The notes beneath the pieces were generated by a model. That model was not told the DNA's origin and made no database searches. It saw nothing but the letters and a program-made list of their open reading frames with translations. From positions 198,712 to 262,711 of the forward strand of contig NZ_KI912149.1 in NCBI RefSeq assembly GCF_000517105.1: a stretch of 64,000 nt of DNA, given 5' to 3'. Origin of the DNA: Fischerella sp. PCC 9605 (GTDB lineage: Bacteria > Cyanobacteriota > Cyanobacteriia > Cyanobacteriales > Nostocaceae). How positions within the stretch are numbered: the first letter of the stretch is position 1; each line of letters opens with the position of its first letter. Position numbers and translations under genes: made by a program. Below are positions 16,844 through 60,873 of the stretch, piece by piece.

Positions 16844-19570
16844 GTTGAAACTTCTATTAATCCCTATTAGGGATTGAAACAAATCGTTGGGTTTACGAAG
16901 CTAGGTGCTTTGATTGTTGAAACTTCTATTAATCCCTATTAGGGATTGAAACCTTTGAGCTGACAGAATAAAAATTGTTTTTTGGTGAATCAGGTTGAAA
17001 CTTCTATTAATCCCTATTAGGGATTGAAACCTATTACCGCTAACTATCCATGTGGTAATTTGATGTTGAAACTTCTATTAATCCCTATTAGGGATTGAAA
17101 CAGCTAGTAGAGGCACAAAACCAGATTGCAAAACTAGAAGAAAGTTGAAACTTCTATTAATCCCTATTAGGGATTGAAACACTCTAGGGGAATCTTACCG
17201 GGGCGTGGTGGAACGTTGAAACTTCTATTAATCCCTATTAGGGATTGAAACTGGCTCTATCAGGTTATGCTCAGGGATGCCCGCGTTGAAACTTCTATTA
17301 ATCCCTATTAGGGATTGAAACTGCTCATCCGTGTATTTGCGCTGATTCAGTTTTTGTTGAAACTTCTATTAATCCCTATTAGGGATTGAAACCTTCAAAG
17401 TCACAGAGAAGATACAGTCCCAACTAAAGTTGAAACTTCTATTAATCCCTATTAGGGATTGAAACACAACAGAGACCATGTAGTAGTCAGGGTCGGCAGT
17501 TGAAACTTCTATTAATCCCTATTAGGGATTGAAACAAGATGGGACTCCGGGGAGTACCCAGTGCTAATAGTTGAAACTTCTATTAATCCCTATTAGGGAT
17601 TGAAACGCAAGTAGCCACTAGGGGTTCCCAGATGACTTTGCGTTGAAACTTCTATTAATCCCTATTAGGGATTGAAACGAGGGTACCAACAAGCAGGTAG
17701 GTCGGACCTGATGTTGAAACTTCTATTAATCCCTATTAGGGATTGAAACACCTTTACCAGCAAGAGAATCACTTAGAGACTTACTAAGGTTGAAACTTCT
17801 ATTAATCCCTATTAGGGATTGAAACAATACCAATAACAGATATTAAAATACCTAAAATACAAGTTGAAACTTCTATTAATCCCTATTAGGGATTGAAACC
17901 TAAAATATATTGCCATTGATTGGAAGAAACAAACATGGGGTTGAAACTTCTATTAATCCCTATTAGGGATTGAAACTATTGAATGACAGTATTGTAAATA
18001 ATAAAGGTAGTGTTGAAACTTCTATTAATCCCTATTAGGGATTGAAACCTTTAGCTGGAGATTGGGGAGGTGCAGCAGTAACTGTTGAAACTTCTATTAA
18101 TCCCTATTAGGGATTGAAACGCTCCTTCATCAGAACTAGCATCAAACACCGCTAAAGTTGAAACTTCTATTAATCCCTATTAGGGATTGAAACGAAAAAA
18201 TCAGTATGTCAACTGAAACAGTTGCGGTTGAAACTTCTATTAATCCCTATTAGGGATTGAAACTAATAAAGAGAAATAACTTATTTATTTAATGAATGGT
18301 TGAAACTTCTATTAATCCCTATTAGGGATTGAAACTATCAGCTTATTTGGCAAAGATACGGTTTATTGGTTGAAACTTCTATTAATCCCTATTAGGGATT
18401 GAAACGTCGCCGGGCTAATCCCGGCATATGCAACTCCATTATTGTTGAAACTTCTATTAATCCCTATTAGGGATTGAAACACTGTGACCTTAGGGCAGAA
18501 TGAGAAATCCAGTAGTTGAAACTTCTATTAATCCCTATTAGGGATTGAAACAAAAAAAGATGCAATGTTAGACAAACAAATTGAAGGTTGAAACTTCTAT
18601 TAATCCCTATTAGGGATTGAAACAATAAGAAAACCCCTAGGTAGCCCTAGGGGTTCCTAACGTTGAAACTTCTATTAATCCCTATTAGGGATTGAAACGC
18701 AGGGATAGAAGATTGTAATATCCAATCCTCGGATAGTTGAAACTTCTATTAATCCCTATTAGGGATTGAAACCATGTTTACCGGCACGCCTAACAAGCTA
18801 CTCATGTTGAAACTTCTATTAATCCCTATTAGGGATTGAAACCCTGGGTATGATAAAACGGGTACCTGGATGGACTGGTTGAAACTTCTATTAATCCCTA
18901 TTAGGGATTGAAACCCCTGATAACCCTAGTTATCAAACAGAGGGTCGCCTAAGTTGAAACTTCTATTAATCCCTATTAGGGATTGAAACTCGCGCCACCA
19001 TTTATCCGCATTGATGAAACTCGTTGAAACTTCTATTAATCCCTATTAGGGATTGAAACTTCGTAGATAGTACTTAACCAGACTAAATCATCCGTTGAAA
19101 CTTCTATTAATCCCTATTAGGGATTGAAACTAGTTTCTCCCATTGCCAAGAGTATCCCTGCTGCACGTTGAAACTTCTATTAATCCCTATTAGGGATTGA
19201 AACAAATCCAACAAACCTGTAAGAGGTAGTGGAGGTGGTGTTGAAACTTCTATTAATCCCTATTAGGGATTGAAACAACGGCTGAACCATTGCAGGAAGA
19301 ACTTAACTCGGGTTGAAACTTCTATTAACCCCTATTAGGGATTGAAACGGAAGTCTTGCAACAGCGTAGTTGCGCCGACCGAGGCATGTTGAAACTTCTA
19401 TTAATCCCTATTAGGGATTGAAACTTGTAGCCGGATGGATAAGCCAACAGCGGCGAGGGTTGAAACTTCTATTAATCCCTATTAGGGATTGAAACCTCTG
19501 GCAAGACTTCATCAGGTTATGACATCTACCCAGGTTGAAACTTCTATTAATCTCTACTAGAGATTGGAAC
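16844..19570 (+). CRISPR. CRISPR array, 38 repeats and 37 spacers
   Basis: The 37-base repeat begins GTTGAAACTTCTATTAA, has the stem TCCCTA-T-TAGGGA, and ends ATTGAAAC, the typical 8-base 5' handle of crRNAs processed by Cas6 in type I and III systems. I count 38 repeats with spacers of about 33-42 bases. Repeats are identical except repeat 35 (19312-19348, one T to C) and the last (19534-19570), which has four changes. The conserved handle and the degenerate last repeat place the leader on the left and transcription on the plus strand. No cas genes occur in the window, so the array must be served from elsewhere. The subtype cannot be fixed from the repeat alone (I-D or III are possible). Confidence 0.98.
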
Positions 19571-50957: not shown

Positions 50958-50982
50958 CGTATAGAGTTGTATAAAGTAGCCC

Positions 50983-51089
50983 TTTGGTGGTGCAATCCCA
51001 AACAATAAGTTTTCTTTGTGTCTTAGTGTCTTGGTGGTTCAAGAAAATTTATTTTTTCACCACCAAGACACTAAGACACCAAGTTGAAT
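50983..51089 (+). repeat. 107-base repeat, copy 1 (loop in one orientation)
   Basis: The repeat has arms GTGTCTTAGTGTCTTGGTGG and CCACCAAGACACTAAGACAC around a 22-base loop (51038-51059, TTCAAGAAAA to TTTTTTCA). The second copy at 59612-59718 has the same length and flanks, but its loop is the exact reverse complement. The rest of 50958-51382 shows nothing else. Confidence 0.92.
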
Positions 51090-51382
51090 CAGGAAAAACA
51101 GGCAATGAAAGCAGATTTTTCACCTATCTTGAAAGGGCTGTTCTATAAAGTTACGTATTGACAAGTTGATACTAAAATTATTTGGTGGTTAAAAATTTGC
51201 AAGCAAGTAGCAGTAAATTCAGGTAAAATTTAACAGCAACTGGGTGCAACCATTGCCGATTTTGCCAGTGTTTTCACATAAACAACATTTGGGGTGATGC
51301 AATTATAATTTGCTGAAGTAAACTGGCAAGCAAGGTAAAGCAATTATTACAAGTGCGGCTCTATGGTTAGGCATCACTGACA

Positions 51383-53950
51383 ATGGAACACTGGCAATTT
51401 CTAATCCAAAAACAGGGCGATCGCTCTTGGCAGCCCTTGGAATCGCCAAACATAGCAATATTAGAAGGTAAGTATAGAGTTGTAGCTCGCTCCAACCTTG
51501 TAAACACGGATGTGGAGGTACGGATAACTCACTCCTCAATTTTGGAAGTACCACCAAAGCGGCGCATTCACAAGCGATCGCGTCGTACTAATGCAGAAGG
51601 CTTAATGGCAGTAATTCCCTTTACCTACCTCAAGCCAGGAATGTGGGAGTTGCAATGTTTTGGTGATTTGATGTCGGATCTTCTCGGGAAATCCTGGCAG
51701 TATAGTGTCCAACTCCAAGTTTTACCCCAGGAAAGAGATTGGGAGATGGGGAGAATGGGAGATAGGGAGAGTAAGCATACTATTACTGAAGCTAGCTTGG
51801 TAACAACTGCCTTAGTAGAATCCGCAATTGTGAAGCAAAATAATGGTTCTGCTACTGTTCTTGTCACTGAAAAAGAAGAAGATGCAATTATCAATCAGCC
51901 TGTTAGCCCAGTTTGGTTAACAGCAGAGACAGCTGAGCAGGTTTTACAACACTTGGTAGATTTAGCTTTACCCTCTTCAGAATCCCTTCTAGAAAATGAA
52001 AAAGTAAAAGTAGAGGATACTCAGCCAGTTATCCCAGAACTACCATTGCTGCTGACTCTAGATGAAGAAAACTATATAACCCATTGGGGACAAACTCTGA
52101 GTATTAATGGGTGTGTGCAACCCAGAGAAACAACTCATTTACCAAGGCTATATACTGGAGAACTGCGAATAGAATTGCGCTCACCTCAAGGCTTGGAAAT
52201 ATTAACCCAGGTACAGCAAAGCTTACTAGAAAAGATACTACCGTTTTCCATAAAATACCCAATTGAGATTCCCGCTGACTGTGAGTCACAGCTAATTCTG
52301 GGTGATATCAGTTTGTATGGCACACTAACGACTGCTGGAGAAGCCATACTGTTAGCCAGCCAATCTTTTACAATCACAGCTGATATTACACAACTACTGG
52401 CAATCAGCGCTGCTGCAAATGAGAATAAACGTGAAGAATTAGACTTACAGGATAACTCTAACGAACCACCAACGCCAGAGCCATCCGTAAAGCTGGATTT
52501 AGAACTGTTCAATATCGTCAAATCCAAAAAAATAGCTCAGTCTTTGCTAGTCCATCCTACTTCTAAAAGCCTACCACCGCTACTTAGCTTTTCTCATAAA
52601 TCTGCTGAGCGTTCGCCGCAACTGCCTAAGCTTCCTCAACTCAACAATCAGATTAATACTGCTGCCGTTGCTTCAGAACCTTCGACACATTTACAGCATT
52701 CGGATCAAGAAAATACTCGCATTACTGTTGAGCTAGCAACAATGGACACCACTGCTATTGTTGTTTCAGAAACTCCAACAAAGTTGCAGCGTTTGCACAA
52801 AGAGGTTTCTTTCGCCATTGTGAAGCGAAGGGCAAGAACAGGTACTACTTTTCCATTCTTGAGGCGGCTAAAAGCTTCGCCTAGCGATCGCCCAGAAGTC
52901 AACGCTGAGGCGCTAAAGGCATTGGACTTGCATATACCTGAAGACTCCCAACCCACAGACTTAAAAACAGTGGCTAATGACGATGCACCTGAATTAGTAA
53001 CAACAGATAAAGCACAATATTCAGATGACTCTTTTGATGACTCTGTAGCAGTAGTTGTTCCGCGTAGCTTGGAATTATCAACAGCCCAAACTTCCTATAC
53101 ATCCCCTTTGATCAGGAAGTGGATGCACAATCATGGATACTCTTTGCCCGAACCTATCGACGTTGAATATGAGGACTACGATACCTACGTTCCAGCTAGC
53201 GAAGGGGTATCTGAAGAACAGGAACCGCTAATTATTAGTACTGAGACTGTGAGTTCAATTGCTAATTTATCGTTAATCTCAGATTGGGAGACGGAACCAA
53301 AGGAAGACAACGAAGACAGTGAAGATAACCAAGACAACGAAGGCAAGGAGAGTTCTCCCCTTCTCCCAGACGCGCCATGGCGCGTCTCTACATTTCCCCC
53401 TCCTCCTCCTTTTGCCTCTCCTTCCTATGAGATGCTATCTGTTCCACATACGAAGACACTGCCAGCTTGGCTAGCAAAAGAAATTGTTGTAGATGATACT
53501 GATAGCCAAGAAGAAGCGAGTGCACACAGCAGTAAACTCTGCCAGCAAGAATCATTCTCTTCGGCGATCGCACCAGAAATCATCGAACCTTTGCCAACTC
53601 CACAACTGTATGTACCTGAAGGTGAACTGATCTCTGGCAAGTCTGTGAAGGTAAGGGCGCTTTTGGATGGCATACGCCCTGATATTGCAATCAAGTTATG
53701 GGTTGAAGATTGTCAAACACGCCGATTATTGGACAGGCCGCGTTTGTTAACAAATCTACTGCCAAACTCTGCGGGAGGATTAGAAGCGATCGCTAAAATT
53801 CACATTCCTCTTGGCTGTTTAGAAATTCGCTTGGAGGCGATCGCTGTAGATATGGAAACCCAACAGGAAAGTCACAAAGTCACTGTTGTGAGGACTGTGA
53901 TTCCAGAGGATTTAGCAAATTTGCAACTAGATGAAATGCTGGGTATTTAA
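51383..53950 (+). CDS. Large acidic protein of unknown function
   Basis: An 855-residue protein without recognised domains. Residues 1-115 look like a beta-rich module (WQPLESPNIAILEGKYRVVA, GMWELQCFGDLM). A related beta module may recur near 225-340 and in the last 120 residues (VPEGELISGKSVKVRALLDG). Long disordered, acidic segments separate them (EPKEDNEDSEDNQDNEGKE near 635). In-frame repeat inserts occur near residue 120 (WEMGRMGDRE) and 662-668 (a palindrome encoding DAPWRVS). No signal peptide is seen. It precedes psaI. Confidence 0.75.
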   Translation: MEHWQFLIQKQGDRSWQPLESPNIAILEGKYRVVARSNLVNTDVEVRITHSSILEVPPKRRIHKRSRRTNAEGLMAVIPFTYLKPGMWELQCFGDLMSDLLGKSWQYSVQLQVLPQERDWEMGRMGDRESKHTITEASLVTTALVESAIVKQNNGSATVLVTEKEEDAIINQPVSPVWLTAETAEQVLQHLVDLALPSSESLLENEKVKVEDTQPVIPELPLLLTLDEENYITHWGQTLSINGCVQPRETTHLPRLYTGELRIELRSPQGLEILTQVQQSLLEKILPFSIKYPIEIPADCESQLILGDISLYGTLTTAGEAILLASQSFTITADITQLLAISAAANENKREELDLQDNSNEPPTPEPSVKLDLELFNIVKSKKIAQSLLVHPTSKSLPPLLSFSHKSAERSPQLPKLPQLNNQINTAAVASEPSTHLQHSDQENTRITVELATMDTTAIVVSETPTKLQRLHKEVSFAIVKRRARTGTTFPFLRRLKASPSDRPEVNAEALKALDLHIPEDSQPTDLKTVANDDAPELVTTDKAQYSDDSFDDSVAVVVPRSLELSTAQTSYTSPLIRKWMHNHGYSLPEPIDVEYEDYDTYVPASEGVSEEQEPLIISTETVSSIANLSLISDWETEPKEDNEDSEDNQDNEGKESSPLLPDAPWRVSTFPPPPPFASPSYEMLSVPHTKTLPAWLAKEIVVDDTDSQEEASAHSSKLCQQESFSSAIAPEIIEPLPTPQLYVPEGELISGKSVKVRALLDGIRPDIAIKLWVEDCQTRRLLDRPRLLTNLLPNSAGGLEAIAKIHIPLGCLEIRLEAIAVDMETQQESHKVTVVRTVIPEDLANLQLDEMLGI
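53368..53387. repeat. Perfect 20-base palindrome inside a gene
   Basis: AGACGCGCCATGGCGCGTCT is a perfect palindrome, read in frame within the 855-residue gene and followed by CTAC. It matches in form the palindrome at 62116-62139, so it is a dispersed repeat unit. Confidence 0.85.
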
Positions 53951-54083
53951 CAAAGCAGGAAATGTTAAACAGTCGTTTACAAACAGTCTTCCAGTGTTAA
54001 AAATCTTTAGAATTTAGAAAATAAGGCAGAATTTGCAGTAAGCTCATCTTGAATTGTAGTGTGATTTAAAAGGAATATTTACT

Positions 54084-54221
54084 ATGGATGCTTCACTTTT
54101 GGCTGCTTCATACTCTGCTTCATTTTTGTCTCCTATCCTCGTTTACACAATTGGTTGGATTCTGCCAATTGCGACATTCGCGTTTATGCTAATTTACATC
54201 GAACGCGAAGATATTGCTTAA
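54084..54221 (+). CDS. psaI: Photosystem I reaction centre subunit VIII
   Basis: A 45-residue single-helix protein, too short for simple gene calling. The C-terminus FMLIYIEREDIA is the family hallmark, preceded by a hydrophobic helix with Pro (SPILVYTIGWILPIATF). It helps organise PsaL and trimer or tetramer contacts of photosystem I. AAAAGGAA lies 12 bases before the ATG. A terminator follows at 54308-54341. Confidence 0.93.
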   Translation: MDASLLAASYSASFLSPILVYTIGWILPIATFAFMLIYIEREDIA

Positions 54222-54231
54222 ATTTGTTAAT

Positions 54232-54296
54232 TGTTGGTAGTTGATGGTTGTTTGGAAAAACTAACAACCAACAAACAACAACTAACAACCAACAAA
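54232..54296. repeat. STRR run between psaI and its terminator
   Basis: GTTGGTAGTTGATGGTTG-type units are followed by the inverted AACAACCAACAAACAAC form. It is the same family as at 10140, 24560 and 26357. Confidence 0.7.
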
Positions 54297-54307
54297 TAAA
54301 AATTAAT

Positions 54308-54341
54308 ACCGCCTATCTCTTAAGAGATGGGCGGTTTTTTT
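54308..54341 (+). terminator. Terminator between psaI and psbJ
   Basis: CCGCCTATCTCTT and AAGAGATGGGCGG form a long stem followed by TTTTTTT on the plus strand, so it terminates psaI. The stem could also stop the convergent psbEFLJ transcript, but no T-run follows on that strand. Confidence 0.88.
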
Positions 54342-54404
54342 AATTCTGATTTCTAAACTGTACGCTAGAAAATTCAGACTATTGATATTAGGTTCATGCC
54401 AATA

Positions 54405-54524
54405 TTAGACAGAAGAACCTAAGCCGGCGTAGGCTCCATAAAAGAAAATACCTACAACAGTAATCACACCTAATCCCGCGATTGTAGCAACAATCCACAG
54501 AGGAATTCTCCCACTTCCAGACAC
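54405..54524 (-). CDS. psbJ: Photosystem II protein J
   Basis: A 39-residue single-helix subunit, GTG start at 54524 with GGAGGAGAAA upstream. The sequence [33 protein letters not shown] is typical. It affects plastoquinone exchange and PSII assembly. Last gene of psbEFLJ; 72 bases separate it from psbL. Confidence 0.95.
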
Positions 54525-54596
54525 AGCTATTTCTCCTCCCTAAACACAAAATCAACCTATGTTAATTAAACAAGAATTAATACCAGTGCTTCCAGT

Positions 54597-54716
54597 TTAG
54601 TTAAAGAAGTAACTGGAAAACAGAATCCCTAGAACAAAAACTAGTAGTAGTCCCAGGTACAGTGAAGTCCGGTTAAGTTCAACCGGCTGATTATTGGGAT
54701 TGGGGCTTCTTTCCAT
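54597..54716 (-). CDS. psbL: Photosystem II protein L
   Basis: A 39-residue single-helix subunit ([19 protein letters not shown], ending SSYFFN). ATG at 54716 has TAGGAGAA upstream. It starts 9 bases after the psbF stop, so it belongs to the same transcript. It is needed for quinone function at the PSII dimer interface. Confidence 0.96.
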
Positions 54717-54725
54717 TATTTTCTC

Positions 54726-54872
<147 letters not shown>

Positions 54873-55121
54873 CTACTTGGCAATTAATTCTTCAACTTGT
54901 TGTTTTGCTTCAAAACGGTTATTCACAATTGGCAATTCTTGCCGCGCTTGTGGGTAATACTCGTTAGGCCGAGGTGTGCCAAACACATCATATGCCAAAC
55001 CTGTGCTGACAAATAACCAACCCGCAATAAACAATGCTGGGATGGTGATGCTGTGAATCACCCAATAACGAACGCTGGTGATAATATCAGAAAATGGACG
55101 TTCTCCAGTACTACCTGACAT
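54873..55121 (-). CDS. psbE: Cytochrome b559 alpha subunit
   Basis: An 82-residue protein with the heme-ligand His in [20 protein letters not shown], and the lumenal tail [32 protein letters not shown] precedes ATG at 55121. First gene of psbEFLJ, following ycf48 by 119 bases on the same strand. Confidence 0.98.
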
Positions 55122-55240
55122 TTATATCCTTACCTCCATCGTTGTTGTTAATGAATTTATTATCCTACAAACTTAAGAAACAGTTACATCTTGCAACTTC
55201 TTTCTCAGAAATAGGAAGGATTGCTTAAACTTTTGTTACA

Positions 55241-56263
55241 TTAACCTGCATCGGATTTAGAAGCTGCTGCAATATTTGGTTGATACTTTAGCAAATAGCC
55301 GCGATCGCCTATTACAAATCCCTGTTCTGGTGAAAAGAAAACTATTTTGTAAAAATTAGCAGGAACTTCTTCTACATCACGGTCTTTTTCCCAAGTTTTG
55401 CCACCATCAGGACTTCGCAGCAAGTTACCACTACCGCCGCTTACCCAAATTTCCTCAGGCGTGCGATACGCTAAATCAAGTAAACCCCAACTTGTAGACA
55501 GTTCAGGGTATTGGGCTTCTAGCCATTCCTCAGGTTTGGCTGGTTCGCTAAACTGTACTACCCCTCCCCGCGCTAGCATCCACAATTGCCCATTGTCGGC
55601 AAAGCCCATATTTTCCACTCGTCGGGAACTATTGCGGTTGTGGGGTACCCAAGCATTTTGACCCGGTTCCCAAGTCGAGTAAAAGTTACCTTTAGCGGAA
55701 ACGGCAACATATTTACCATCAGCAGAACGTTTCATGTTACGTACCACACCGACAGCTTCTTCTACCTGGGCCTTCCAGTTTTGACCCCCATCTGTAGTTT
55801 TATATATTGCTCCCACATCAGTAGCCATCTCAGCTGATTTTGCTCCTAGTGCCAGGATATTAACCGGATTGCCAGGAAGCTTTTCGCTTAAGGGAACCCG
55901 CAACCAAGAACGACCTTCATCAGTACTGTGCAGTAGCAGAGAAGGTTCGCCAACAATCCATCCTTCCTCTCCTGCAAAACTGATAGAGTTAAAGCGGTAT
56001 TTGTCGTTATCTAGTTGAAGTTTGATGGACTGCCAAGTTTCGCCACCATCTTTAGTTTCTAAAAGAGTAGCGTTGCTGCCTACGAGATAACCATGCTGAG
56101 GATTGCCAGTAAAAGCAATATCCAACAATTTTGCATCTGTACCTATAGAAATTACTTCCCAAGGGTTGTAGCTAGTCGAAGGAACTTTACTACAACCGAC
56201 ACACATGATGACAACAGCAAACAGGGCAATGATTCGTTGCCAAATTTTCATTCTTGAACGCAT
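55241..56263 (-). CDS. ycf48: Photosystem II assembly factor Ycf48 (HCF136)
   Basis: A 340-residue lipoprotein-like precursor (VVIMCVGCSK near residue 24) that folds as a seven-bladed propeller. Repeated blade motifs are seen (LLETKDGGETWQSI, LLHSTDEGRSWLRV, IYKTTDGGQNWKA, LLRSPDGGKTWEKD). It binds the D1 precursor during photosystem II assembly and repair in the thylakoid lumen. It lies between rubA and psbE on the same strand, the arrangement conserved in cyanobacteria. An internal ATG at 56251 is an alternative start. Confidence 0.96.
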   Translation of the reverse strand: MRSRMKIWQRIIALFAVVIMCVGCSKVPSTSYNPWEVISIGTDAKLLDIAFTGNPQHGYLVGSNATLLETKDGGETWQSIKLQLDNDKYRFNSISFAGEEGWIVGEPSLLLHSTDEGRSWLRVPLSEKLPGNPVNILALGAKSAEMATDVGAIYKTTDGGQNWKAQVEEAVGVVRNMKRSADGKYVAVSAKGNFYSTWEPGQNAWVPHNRNSSRRVENMGFADNGQLWMLARGGVVQFSEPAKPEEWLEAQYPELSTSWGLLDLAYRTPEEIWVSGGSGNLLRSPDGGKTWEKDRDVEEVPANFYKIVFFSPEQGFVIGDRGYLLKYQPNIAAASKSDAG

Positions 56264-56352
56264 TTCTATCTATCTATTAGTTTTTTGTAAATTTGTTTAT
56301 GGTTACTTACTTTAGGTGAGGCATAGCCCCACCTAATACTTAAGAGCGCGTC

Positions 56353-56688
56353 TTATTGTAAGCCATAAAGACTGAGAAAGAACAAGAAAGCAAGGGCTAA
56401 ACCACCAAAAATCAGAAGATTCTTCTGAGTAGGGGTCAAGCTATTGACACCGAAGCCATAACCGAGATTTTCTTGGAAGCCAGAAGCCTTACCCGCAGGA
56501 CCAATATTGGTGAAAGCGTTCTTCTTTGCACTACAAACCGGACAGCGCCAAGTTAGTGGCAGTTCTGCGAAAGCCGTGCCTGGAGAAATGTCATGTTTTT
56601 CGTCCCCCTTGTTGGGTTCGTAGACGTAACCACAGGAACGACACTCATAGCGGTCTAAAACTGGATTTTCAACAGTTTGTTCGCTCAT
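56353..56688 (-). CDS. rubA: Rubredoxin, membrane-anchored
   Basis: A 111-residue protein. The rubredoxin iron site is ECRSCGYVYEP and WRCPVCSAKK. A C-terminal hydrophobic segment (LLIFGGLALAFLFFLSLYGL) anchors it in the thylakoid membrane. Cyanobacterial RubA is required for photosystem assembly (RC/PSII and PSI). It is the first gene of rubA-ycf48-psbEFLJ and is divergent from ndhC. Confidence 0.95.
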   Translation of the reverse strand: MSEQTVENPVLDRYECRSCGYVYEPNKGDEKHDISPGTAFAELPLTWRCPVCSAKKNAFTNIGPAGKASGFQENLGYGFGVNSLTPTQKNLLIFGGLALAFLFFLSLYGLQ

Positions 56689-56882
56689 GGCTGTAGCATG
56701 GGTGAGGGTCGAAGCTTAAATATACGTTAAAAATTATGACATAATTGTTAGGTTTTTCTATCACAAGCAAAAACGAATCAAATAACCCCTGGCTATATTT
56801 TCTAAAACTCGGAAATATCAAATGGATATAATGTAAAAGAAAGTAACAGAGTTGTTTTCACCTATAGCGGTAGATATCTATT

Positions 56883-57245
56883 GTGTTTGTCCTCAGCGGT
56901 TACGAGTACCTTCTAGGCTTCTTAATCATCTGTAGCCTAGTGCCTGCCTTAGCTCTAGCAGCATCCAAACTCCTGCGACCTGGTGGCCGCAGCCCAGAAC
57001 GGCGCACCACCTACGAATCCGGCATGGAACCCATCGGTGGAGCCTGGATTCAATTTAATATCCGCTACTACATGTTTGCGCTGGTATTTGTGGTATTTGA
57101 TGTGGAGACAGTGTTTTTATATCCTTGGGCAGTTGCTTTCCACCGTCTGGGTTTATTGGCATTCATAGAAGCGCTAATTTTTATTGCAATTCTTGTAGTT
57201 GCCCTAGTTTACGCATGGCGTAAAGGAGCTTTGGAATGGTCTTAG
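56883..57245 (+). CDS. ndhC: NDH-1 subunit 3
   Basis: A 120-residue membrane subunit of the NAD(P)H dehydrogenase-like complex, with three hydrophobic segments. GTG start at 56883. The family signature [20 protein letters not shown] and the acidic helix [14 protein letters not shown] are present. It overlaps ndhK by 10 bases. Confidence 0.96.
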
Positions 57246-57982
57246 ATGCTAATTTAACAGCTAAAGATTTGGAACAGCAGCAAAAAGAGCGCATCCTCAG
57301 CCCGATTGGTCGTCCGACAGTTACTCAAGAACTGTCGGAAAACGTGATTTTGACCACGGTTGATGACCTCTACAACTGGGCACGTCTTTCCAGTCTTTGG
57401 CCTTTATTGTTTGGTACTGCTTGCTGCTTCATCGAGTTTGCAGCAATGATTGGCTCCCGATTTGACTTTGACCGCTTTGGATTAATCCCCCGTTCCAGCC
57501 CTCGGCAAGCTGACTTAATTATTACAGCAGGTACGATCACCATGAAGATGGCACCCCAACTGGTGCGTCTTTATGAACAGATGCCTGAACCTAAGTATGT
57601 AATTGCAATGGGAGCTTGTACGATTACTGGCGGGATGTTCAGCATGGATTCCCCGACAGCGGTGCGCGGAGTCGATAAACTAATTCCAGTGGATGTGTAT
57701 TTGCCTGGTTGTCCGCCACGTCCGGAAGCGATTATGGATGCGATTATTAAATTGCGGAAGAAAATCGCTAATGATTCGATGCAAGAGCGGAGTGTAATCA
57801 AGCAAACACACCGCTACTACAGCACGACTCACAGTATGAAATCAGTGCCACAAATCCACACTGGTAAATATATGCTTTCCGATACTCGCGTCACGCCGCC
57901 AAAAGAATTGACGGAAGCGATGGGTTTACCAGTACCACCTGCTCTGTTGACAGCGAAGAAGGAGGAGGTAAGCCGTGGCTGA
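57236..57982 (+). CDS. ndhK: NDH-1 subunit K, 4Fe-4S protein
   Basis: A 248-residue subunit holding cluster N2. The ligands are the tandem Cys pair in [11 protein letters not shown], Cys in [11 protein letters not shown] and Cys in [11 protein letters not shown]. It connects the hydrophilic arm to the membrane arm in cyclic electron flow and respiration. It overlaps both ndhC (10 bases) and ndhJ (8 bases), a tightly coupled operon. The C-terminal extension of about 45 residues is usual in cyanobacteria. Confidence 0.97.
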
Positions 57983-58499
57983 AGAATCAAAACCAGTACC
58001 AACAGGAGAACAGTCAATAGTACAAGCAGGTAAAACTTCCCAGTGGTTGACGGAAAATGGTTTTGCCAATGAATCTTTGGAACCCGATGTGAACGGGGTA
58101 GAGATAATTAAGGTTGAACCGGATTTCCTACTGCCAATTTGCACTGCTTTGTATGCCTACGGGTTTAATTATCTCCAGTGTCAATGCGGTATTGACCTAG
58201 GGCCCGGACAGGATTTGGTCAGCATGTATCACTTGATTAAAGTCAGTGATAATGTTGATAAGCCAGAGGAAGTACGTATCAAAGTTTTCTTGCCACGAGA
58301 AAATCCCAGAGTGCCTTCAGTGTACTGGATTTGGAAAACTGCTGACTGGCAAGAGCGCGAGTCTTACGATATGTTCGGGATTGTTTACGAAGGACACCCG
58401 GATTTGAAGCGAATTTTGATGCCGGAAGATTGGGTAGGTTGGCCCTTACGTAAGGATTACGTGTCGCCTGATTTCTACGAGTTGCAAGACGCTTATTAG
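57975..58499 (+). CDS. ndhJ: NDH-1 subunit J
   Basis: A 174-residue hydrophilic subunit (30-kDa type). GTG start at 57975, inside the ndhK end. Family features are [20 protein letters not shown] and [11 protein letters not shown]. Last gene of ndhCKJ; a terminator follows at 58525. Confidence 0.96.
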
Positions 58500-58524
58500 A
58501 GTTAATGGCACCTCACCTTCATTG

Positions 58525-58561
58525 CCCCCCTTTCCGTTGGCGGAGAGGGGGGTGGTTTTTT
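58525..58561 (+). terminator. Terminator after ndhJ
   Basis: CCCCCCTTTCCG-ttgg-CGGAGAGGGGGG forms a 12-bp stem (one mismatch), followed by TGGTTTTTT. It lies 26 bases after the ndhJ stop. Confidence 0.9.
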
Positions 58562-58720
58562 GGAGGACTGCTACAACAGATAAAAAAATTACATTTGCAA
58601 GGCGATATTTTTACTCATACAATCGAGAACAGGCTTGGTTATATTTAACACAAGCCTAAATATGTTTAATTGATTAGTCGGTTAATAATTCAGGCTGAAA
58701 AAGCGATCGCTAAACCACAA

Positions 58721-59602
58721 ATGATGGTAAACAAAATAAATGATATCGCTTGGCAGGCACGTCAGGGTAGCGTTGCTGCGATTATTCAAGTATTGAACGA
58801 AAAATTAGCAAATTCAGGTGTCAGAACAAGAGCTGTTTTTGATGATGGTGTATTGCAGCTTCTCTGTGAAGCTTCCACGGTAGATAAACTAGAGCAATCA
58901 ACTCTAGTCAAGCAAATCCAGCAAATTCTCAAGTCAATTGCACCCCGTAATATCCGTAGAGTCAATATCAATAGCCGAATTGTACGAGAACAGCAATTGT
59001 TATGGTTAGAAGAAATTACCCGCGACCCTGAGAATCAATTGCTATGGTCTGAGGAAATCATATTAGAAACACCTAATTATTTTCAGGAATTAATTAAAAA
59101 ATTTCGAGAGCAAAAATCTGAATCAGCAAAGCTAATTTTACCCAAGTTCCAATCTTCTCGTCCTAAAGCAATTACTAACAATAAGCTCAAAAACTCAGCC
59201 TGGGGAAGATTATCACTTGCTTTGAGTTTATGCTTATTTTTGCTTTTGCTAGGCTGGCTTGTTTATGCTGTAGTGAATGGCAAACTGAAAAATCTAGCCG
59301 TTTCTGGAATATCAAATTCTCAAAACCGAACAACAGAATCTTTTATCCAAAGTGCTTCTACACAAACAGAAGACGCCTTTACACAAGCAGTACGAATTGC
59401 TAATCAAGCTTCTGCTGATGGTAAAACAGCTAAAACTTCAATTCAGTGGTTAGAAATAGCTGCTGACTGGCAAAGGGCTTCAGATTTAATGAGTCAGGTT
59501 CCACCTAATCACAGTCGTTATCAAGAAGCGCAAATCCGGACTAAGTTGTATCAGCAATATAGTAAGGAGGCGCAGAAAGAGGCACAAAAGAGTAAATATT
59601 AG
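58721..59602 (+). CDS. Membrane protein of unknown function
   Basis: About 293 residues. I prefer ATG at 58721 (MMVNKINDIAWQARQGSVAA) over the TTG frame start at 58670, but no ribosome-binding site decides it. Residues 8-60 form a small conserved-looking domain (AAIIQVLNEKLANSGVRTRA). One transmembrane helix lies near 170-190 (LSLALSLCLFLLLLGWLVYA). The C-terminal part is helical and hydrophilic (IQWLEIAADWQRASDLM), as in repeat-containing scaffold proteins. The function is unknown. Confidence 0.6.
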   Translation: MMVNKINDIAWQARQGSVAAIIQVLNEKLANSGVRTRAVFDDGVLQLLCEASTVDKLEQSTLVKQIQQILKSIAPRNIRRVNINSRIVREQQLLWLEEITRDPENQLLWSEEIILETPNYFQELIKKFREQKSESAKLILPKFQSSRPKAITNNKLKNSAWGRLSLALSLCLFLLLLGWLVYAVVNGKLKNLAVSGISNSQNRTTESFIQSASTQTEDAFTQAVRIANQASADGKTAKTSIQWLEIAADWQRASDLMSQVPPNHSRYQEAQIRTKLYQQYSKEAQKEAQKSKY

Positions 59603-59611
59603 AACTAGCCA

Positions 59612-59718
59612 TTTGGTGGTGCAATCCTAAACAATAAGTTTTCTTTGTGTCTTGGTGTCTTTGTAGTGAAAAAATAAATTTTCTTGAACCACCAAGGCAC
59701 TAAGACACCAAGTCGAAT
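59612..59718 (+). repeat. 107-base repeat, copy 2 (loop inverted)
   Basis: It matches copy 1 (50983-51089) in length and in both flanks, but the 22-base loop (59667-59688, TGAAAAAATA to TTCTTGAA) is the exact reverse complement. The stem arms differ slightly (GTGTCTTTGTAG), so this stem is less perfect. Confidence 0.92.
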
Positions 59719-59790
59719 GTTGAATATATACAGGCTTGTTTAAGTTATGCGAGTTGCCAGGAATAGAAAAAGGTGGCGATCGCACTTCAC
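59719..59790 (+). pseudogene. Scar of a deleted DUF433/DUF5615 toxin-antitoxin copy
   Basis: 59719-59750 matches the antitoxin gene at 60796-60827 (31 of 32 bases). It is joined, 3 bases later, to a match of the toxin gene end (TTGCCAGGAATAGAA, 61222 onward) and its downstream GGCGATCGCAC. The junction lies at TATGC, present in both genes, so about 390 bases were lost by recombination at that microhomology. Confidence 0.75.
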
Positions 59791-60642: not shown

Positions 60643-60873
60643 ATGAGTTGGCAAGAGCGAATCGTGGTTGATCCAGAGATTCTGGTCGGTAAACCTACCA
60701 TCAAAGGGACACGTTTGGCCGTTGAATTTATTATTGAACTGCTTGCGGAGGGATGGTCACAAGCAGATATTTTGAGAAACTATCCAGGCTTAACAGTTGA
60801 AGATATACAGGCTTGTTTAAGTTATGCCAGTGTGATGCTGAAAGCTGAAAAAGTTTACCCATTACAGGTTTAA
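60643..60873 (+). CDS. DUF433 antitoxin
   Basis: A 76-residue protein with the DUF433 pattern IVVDPEILVGKPTIKGTRLA, then FIIELLAEGWSQADILRNYP. This winged helix-like domain pairs with PIN-like toxins. It ends 3 bases before the toxin GTG. It is divergent from the RelE/ParE module, so both modules share a short promoter region (60552-60642). Confidence 0.85.
   Translation: MSWQERIVVDPEILVGKPTIKGTRLAVEFIIELLAEGWSQADILRNYPGLTVEDIQACLSYASVMLKAEKVYPLQV

What the first reader, a model, noticed from the sequence alone, without database searches (positions are those of the whole stretch)
50983..59718. A 107-base repeat pair with an exactly inverted 22-base loop
The copies at 50983-51089 and 59612-59718 have equal length and matching flanks. 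The loop between the inverted arms (51038-51059) is the perfect reverse complement of the loop at 59667-59688, at the same offset (55) in both. Point mutation cannot do this. The loop must have flipped, through recombination between the arms or template switching during replication. It may be a mobile hairpin whose loop orientation is variable.
Basis: seen in the sequence. Interest (0 to 1): 0.7.

Follow-up and report, generated by a model that had tools for sequence, protein, structure and literature searches.

The report
Mobile repeat with a flipping hairpin
A short mobile DNA repeat scattered through a cyanobacterium-like genome carries a hairpin whose centre has been turned end-for-end several times in evolution, probably by copying slips at the hairpin, so its many copies record a kind of mutation that is usually seen one site at a time.

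Summary
In detail: the loops at 51038-51059 and 59667-59688 are exact reverse complements. The '107-base repeat' is most of a MITE of about 163 bp, with terminal inverted repeats and, in 21 of 24 two-ended elements, target duplications of 11-15 bp. The own genome holds about 40 hairpin copies. What flips is usually the hairpin core with part of its arms. In the own genome the two orientations of this subfamily track two flank variants (4 of 4 and 9 of 9), so the window pair shows an old flip that was then copied. Flipping recurs: two young MITE pairs go from 13 differences to 1 when a 38-bp core is inverted, and at orthologous sites in relatives 6 of 26 callable sites are inverted (3 of 19 if both flanks are required), against 2 of 21,300 simulated loops. 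Orientation is the same at 20 of 26, so this is not a fast switch. Breakpoints vary. Best reading: template switching in replication at a hairpin, as known from plastid small inversions and rRNA loop inversions, here inside a bacterial MITE family. New member of a known kind.

The parts
50966..50977 (.). left target duplication of copy A, GTTGTATAAAGT
   Evidence: 11 of 12 matches with the right one
50978..51139 (+). copy A, complete MITE of 162 bp, AGCCCTTTGGTGGTG...CTTGAAAGGGCT
51014..51083 (+). hairpin of copy A, orientation A; 21 consecutive pairs
51140..51151 (.). right target duplication of copy A, GTTCTATAAAGT
59607..59718 (+). copy B, left part of a MITE; right end missing after 59718
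   Evidence: no right terminal repeat within the locus L013
59643..59712 (+). hairpin of copy B, orientation B, inverted relative to copy A

Best explanation
The two copies belong to a MITE family whose middle is a strong hairpin. Now and then the hairpin core is inverted in place, most likely because replication switches template between the two complementary arms, copies the loop from the other strand and switches back. The MITE then spreads in whichever orientation it has, so orientations form lineages. Shown: MITE anatomy, inversion, recurrence, inversion at orthologous sites, mostly inherited orientation. Inferred: template switching as the molecular step.
For: Two MITE pairs of the own genome go from 13 differences to 1 after a 38-bp core is inverted; both flank haplotypes occur with both orientations. 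6 of 26 callable orthologous sites inverted, 3 of 19 with both flanks, against 2 of 21,300 simulated loops. The loop of L070/L306 has no close match among the other collected hairpins (scores 6 and 8 against 12 for the partner), so no donor was seen. Breakpoints range from whole hairpin (L070/L306) to loop only (L065/L171), and look different in the two arms in L062/L181, L329/L285 and L218/L078, as template switching allows. In copy A the two right-arm positions that differ from L002 and L003 both restore pairing. Template switching is reported to invert loops and mend stems (PMC8794818).
Against: No experiment or read data. The asymmetric breakpoints rest on a few variable arm positions, and L070/L306 has one contrary position. 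Two of the six inverted sites rest on one flank and one was admitted by hand. In the young subfamily the two A copies with both ends lack target duplications, which hints at exchange between copies. The flank tree did not resolve orientation.
Confidence: 0.62

Rival explanations
1. Ectopic gene conversion: because the arms are palindromic, another copy of the family can pair in either orientation and overwrite the core backwards.
For: Tens of similar copies per genome; many loops have near-identical loops elsewhere, e.g. for L261/L314 and L329/L285 other loops match as well as or better than the partner; both flank haplotypes of the young subfamily carry both orientations, and its A copies L039 and L040 lack target duplications.
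Against: The L070/L306 loop has no comparable match among the other collected hairpins, and L065/L171 match each other as well as any other loop. The census is partial: 213 hairpins, 40 candidates scored per genome.
Confidence: 0.2
2. Reciprocal exchange between the two arms of one hairpin (RecA-type or through a cruciform), inverting what lies between.
For: Gives the same product when breakpoints are symmetric, as in the young subfamily, where both lie in an 11-bp identical stretch (reading). A chloroplast paper cites 11-24-bp repeats as sufficient for small inversions by homologous recombination (PMC12928735, passage).
Against: Apparent asymmetric breakpoints in three pairs and loop-only inversion in L065/L171; arms of about 24 nt separated by about 22 nt are short for such exchange (general knowledge).
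Confidence: 0.12
3. A site-specific recombinase or phase-variation switch acts on the arms.
For: Inverted repeats flank an invertible segment.
Against: Breakpoints vary along the arms; same orientation at 20 of 26 callable sites, where random orientation would give 6 or fewer inverted with probability 0.005. No search for a recombinase gene was made.
Confidence: 0.03
4. The flip happens during transposition of the MITE.
For: Copies at different places differ in orientation.
Against: Inversions at orthologous sites without movement; MITEs with an interrupted arm, L336-L338, still carry target duplications.
Confidence: 0.02
5. Assembly error or chance resemblance.
For: Palindromes can be misassembled; no reads were available.
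Against: Hairpins of about 70 bp in unique flanks; inversions between several assemblies, including a one-contig genome (G070) against the 6.7-Mb contig of an 8-contig genome (G174); simulation 2 of 21,300.
Confidence: 0.01

Closest known systems
Hairpin-associated small inversions of chloroplast DNA (PMC6824564 and PMC12928735, passages read; Kim and Lee 2005 seen only as cited there)
   Same: Loop between short inverted arms flips in place; recurrent and homoplasious; intergenic; PMC12928735 cites 5-50 bp inverted between 11-24-bp arms
   Different: Single plastid sites; here the hairpin is the core of a mobile multicopy element in a bacterial genome, and arms often flip too
Template-switch loop inversions in RNA genes (PMC8794818, abstract and passages read)
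   Same: Loop inversion and stem correction by template switching, with bacterial rRNA examples
   Different: There loops are mostly four nucleotides; here 38 bp or more, in dispersed repeats
Inversion of Correia elements, a MITE of Neisseria (Elbeyioglu 2017, seen only as cited in PMC10969869)
   Same: MITE-associated inversion in a bacterium
   Different: As cited, the element itself inverts; here the MITE ends keep their orientation and the core turns
REPINs and GTAG/CGTC palindromic repeats (PMC3116915, PMC3733652, passages read)
   Same: Small dispersed palindromic DNA, also reported in Nostoc
   Different: Here terminal inverted repeats, 11-15-bp target duplications, long 8-nt-periodic arms, and no GTAG or CGTC at the foot of the hairpin
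Nezha and other cyanobacterial MITEs (seen only as cited in PMC3733652 and PMC10969869)
   Same: Cyanobacterial MITE
   Different: Sequence not compared: papers not held; that Nezha differs in target duplication is recalled, not tested

Membership tests
MITE | short, non-coding, with terminal inverted repeats | tested here: met
   24 elements with both ends in the fetched own-genome loci, commonly 153, 163 or 208 bp; end pattern 81 hits against 2 for its reversed control
MITE | target site duplication | tested here: met
   21 of 24 with 11-15 bp; re-paired flanks reach the same threshold in 24 of 4585
MITE | empty sites in relatives | tested here: met
   no two-arm hairpin and no pair of terminal repeats in 13 related loci; both neighbouring genes in place in 3 of the 6 for copy A; one of the 7 for copy B has a lone end-like 13-mer
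MITE | autonomous partner with the same ends | tested here: inconclusive
   no inverted pair of ends 1-2 kb apart in the own-genome list; relatives not searched for it
hairpin-associated small inversion | loop inverted between inverted arms at an orthologous place | tested here: met
   6 of 26 callable sites, 3 of 19 with both flanks
hairpin-associated small inversion | recurrent | tested here: met
   six sites plus the young subfamily
REPIN | GTAG or CGTC tag at the foot of the hairpin | tested here: not met
   foot reads CTTN...NAAG in the copies printed
REPIN | RAYT transposase in the genome | not tested
   no search made
phase-variable inverton | both orientations in one culture | not testable with these tools
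   no reads

The most novel reading that the evidence does not exclude
The hairpin is kept across diverged MITE subfamilies because core inversion and arm correction renew it, and its orientation matters to the neighbouring gene (asymmetric RNA ends or termination), so the family acts as a genome-wide set of slow, heritable switches.
Probability: 0.06. Interest if true: 0.75.

Novelty: new member of a known kind. Interest (0 to 1): 0.42.

Why it matters
Hairpin-core inversion is usually caught one site at a time. A family with tens of copies per genome, some at orthologous sites, would let its rate and breakpoints be measured in bacteria and compared with plastids, which descend from cyanobacteria. 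It also warns that such clusters of differences are one event in alignments and trees. Listings of searches for cyanobacterial MITEs (11 papers), microinversions with hairpins in bacteria (5 papers) and invertons (9 papers) showed no title or abstract reporting this; the library holds open-licence papers only.

Tried and rejected
Plasmid collection, distant mode: no match. Exact flank pattern in the species-genome collection: none. Own genus: only the own genome is held. Flank tree of subfamily 1: mostly unresolved, orientation no more clustered than in shuffles. Autonomous element: not found. Idea that A copies without target duplications are recombinants of other MITE ends: two exact-pattern searches, none found. 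Elhai 2008 on small mobile cyanobacterial repeats: not held. A paper search for loop orientation in REPINs found none. Pair L069/L098 dropped as not the same site. L037 could not be scored because its right part is missing.

Choices behind 6 of 26: the rule for an orthologous site was set; L065/L171 was let in by hand because its contig begins near the hairpin (a 149-bp match spans the hairpin); L062/L181 and L329/L285 rest on one flank; 3 sites were unclear. Two more same-orientation sites (L191/L058, L194/L063) were not counted because one member lacks two clean arms; with them it is 6 of 28. The census is partial: 213 hairpins, at most 40 candidates scored per genome, and not all listed places fetched.

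Full report
Observation. The two loops are exact reverse complements at equal offset. The direct repeat is 116 nt at 84% identity, and the 70-nt hairpins are 91% complementary to each other.

What the repeat is. The own genome (8.08 Mb, 12 contigs) gives 88 matches, most hairpins appearing on both strands, with 40 of 235 candidates scored; a strict two-arm scan of the fetched loci leaves 38 distinct hairpins. Printed with flanks, the repeat is the left two thirds of an element with ends AGCCCTTTGGTGGTG or AGCCCTTTCAAGGTG and ...AAAGGGCT. The end pattern, with one mismatch allowed, occurs 81 times in the own genome against 2 for its reversed control. Of 24 elements with both ends in the fetched loci, 21 have a direct duplication of 11-15 bp, most often 12; copy A has 11 of 12 matches. 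With left and right flanks re-paired at random the same threshold is met in 24 of 4585. Without duplication are L039 and L040; L036 has 7 bp. Some duplications lie in short repeated sequence (L004, L340) and are weaker evidence. In relatives, 6 loci matching the gene before copy A and 7 matching the gene before copy B have no two-arm hairpin and no pair of ends; in 3 of the 6 the gene after copy A is also in place, and one of the 7 (L149) has a lone end-like 13-mer. Copy B has lost its right end at 59718. It is a MITE; subfamilies share ends and hairpin and differ in between. No autonomous partner was found.

The hairpin is not needed for movement. L336-L338 share an insertion of about 55 bp in the left arm, and L340 lacks the left arm and part of the loop, yet each has a duplication of its own.

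The flip in the window pair. Own-genome copies with a readable AATCCY marker split cleanly: AATCCC with orientation A in 4 of 4 (L001, L002, L003, L009), AATCCT with orientation B in 9 of 9 (L004, L006, L007, L008, L010, L011, L012, L013, L035) (one search repeats this but its simple rule leaves L010 uncalled). So the window pair shows an old flip that was then copied. In relatives the link fails: L048/L055 is A with AATCCT. By reading, A and B arms agree better inverted at arm positions 12 and 20 and better direct at position 4, which puts the breakpoint in the outer part of the arm.

Flips elsewhere. In the young 153-bp subfamily of the own genome, L040 and L342 differ at 13 positions, and at 1 after a 38-bp core is inverted; L039 and L343 likewise go from 13 to 1; the other L039/L040 comparisons go from 13-16 to 2-4. 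Flank haplotypes GCCC...ACCC (L040 A; L341, L342, L336-L338 B) and GCTC...ACTC (L039 A; L343 B) each carry both orientations, so there were two inversions, or one plus exchange. The two A copies with both ends, L039 and L040, lack target duplications, and L037 lacks its right end, whereas the seven B copies have them; I cannot explain this. A third subfamily also shows both orientations (L036 against L042 and L043, by eye).

Orthologous sites. 213 distinct hairpins from nine genomes were matched by flanks with the hairpin left out. Under the rule, 41 pairs form 29 sites: 20 same, 6 inverted, 3 unclear. Inverted: L070/L306, L218/L078, L261/L314 (both flanks), L065/L171 (admitted by hand; a match spans the hairpin), L062/L181 and L329/L285 (one flank). 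Counting only pairs with both flanks, 3 of 19 callable sites are inverted. Simulated loops at 15% divergence without inversion meet the criterion in 2 of 21,300; for five of the six pairs no simulation of 5,000 reaches the observed difference even at 30% divergence, and for L329/L285 one does. If orientation were random, 6 or fewer of 26 would have probability 0.005, so orientation is mostly inherited and flips are occasional.

Mechanism. Breakpoints vary: nearly the whole hairpin in L070/L306 (one contrary position), only the loop in L065/L171, and in L062/L181, L329/L285 and L218/L078 the two arms seem cut at different places, each on few positions. A recombinase would be expected to cut at one place. 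Copy A's arms hold 21 consecutive pairs, -25.8 kcal/mol as DNA against -14.4 for copy B, and the two right-arm positions that differ from L002 and L003 restore pairing. Inverted loops and mended stems are what template switching predicts (PMC8794818). Ectopic conversion remains possible where similar loops exist elsewhere, but the L070/L306 loop has no comparable match among the other hairpins collected.

Comparison. Plastid small inversions have the same anatomy (passages). Template-switch loop inversion is described in bacterial rRNA (passages). Correia MITEs are reported to invert (as cited in a review). REPINs differ in tag and ends (passages). This is a well replicated member of the hairpin-inversion kind, inside a MITE family. 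That the genome is a Nostocales-like cyanobacterium is my inference from GCGATCGC sites and gene content; no call named the organism.

Verdict. Real and explained in outline; useful as a natural experiment, not a new kind of system.

Noticed in passing
59719-59754 and 60796-60831: A 36-bp direct repeat (94%) brackets two small minus-strand ORFs that look like a toxin-antitoxin pair (by eye); the MITE copy B is cut off exactly where the first repeat begins.
   Followed up: no
L009, L035, L334, L336-L338 (own genome): Other G+C-rich short repeats have inserted into the hairpin arms of the MITE; L336-L338 carry nearly the same insertion at three places.
   Followed up: partly
L039, L040, L037 against L336-L339, L341-L343 (own genome): In the young subfamily the A-orientation copies lack target duplications or an end, while the seven B copies have them; two searches for partner ends found nothing.
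   Followed up: partly
L340 (own genome): A 123-bp MITE seems to have lost its left arm and part of the loop by deletion between AATAAATTTTCTT in the flank and the same word in the loop (by eye).
   Followed up: no
L081 against L055: At an orthologous site one arm is shorter by a single 8-nt unit.
   Followed up: no
16844-19495: CRISPR array, 36 repeats of Rfam family CRISPR-DR5.
   Followed up: no
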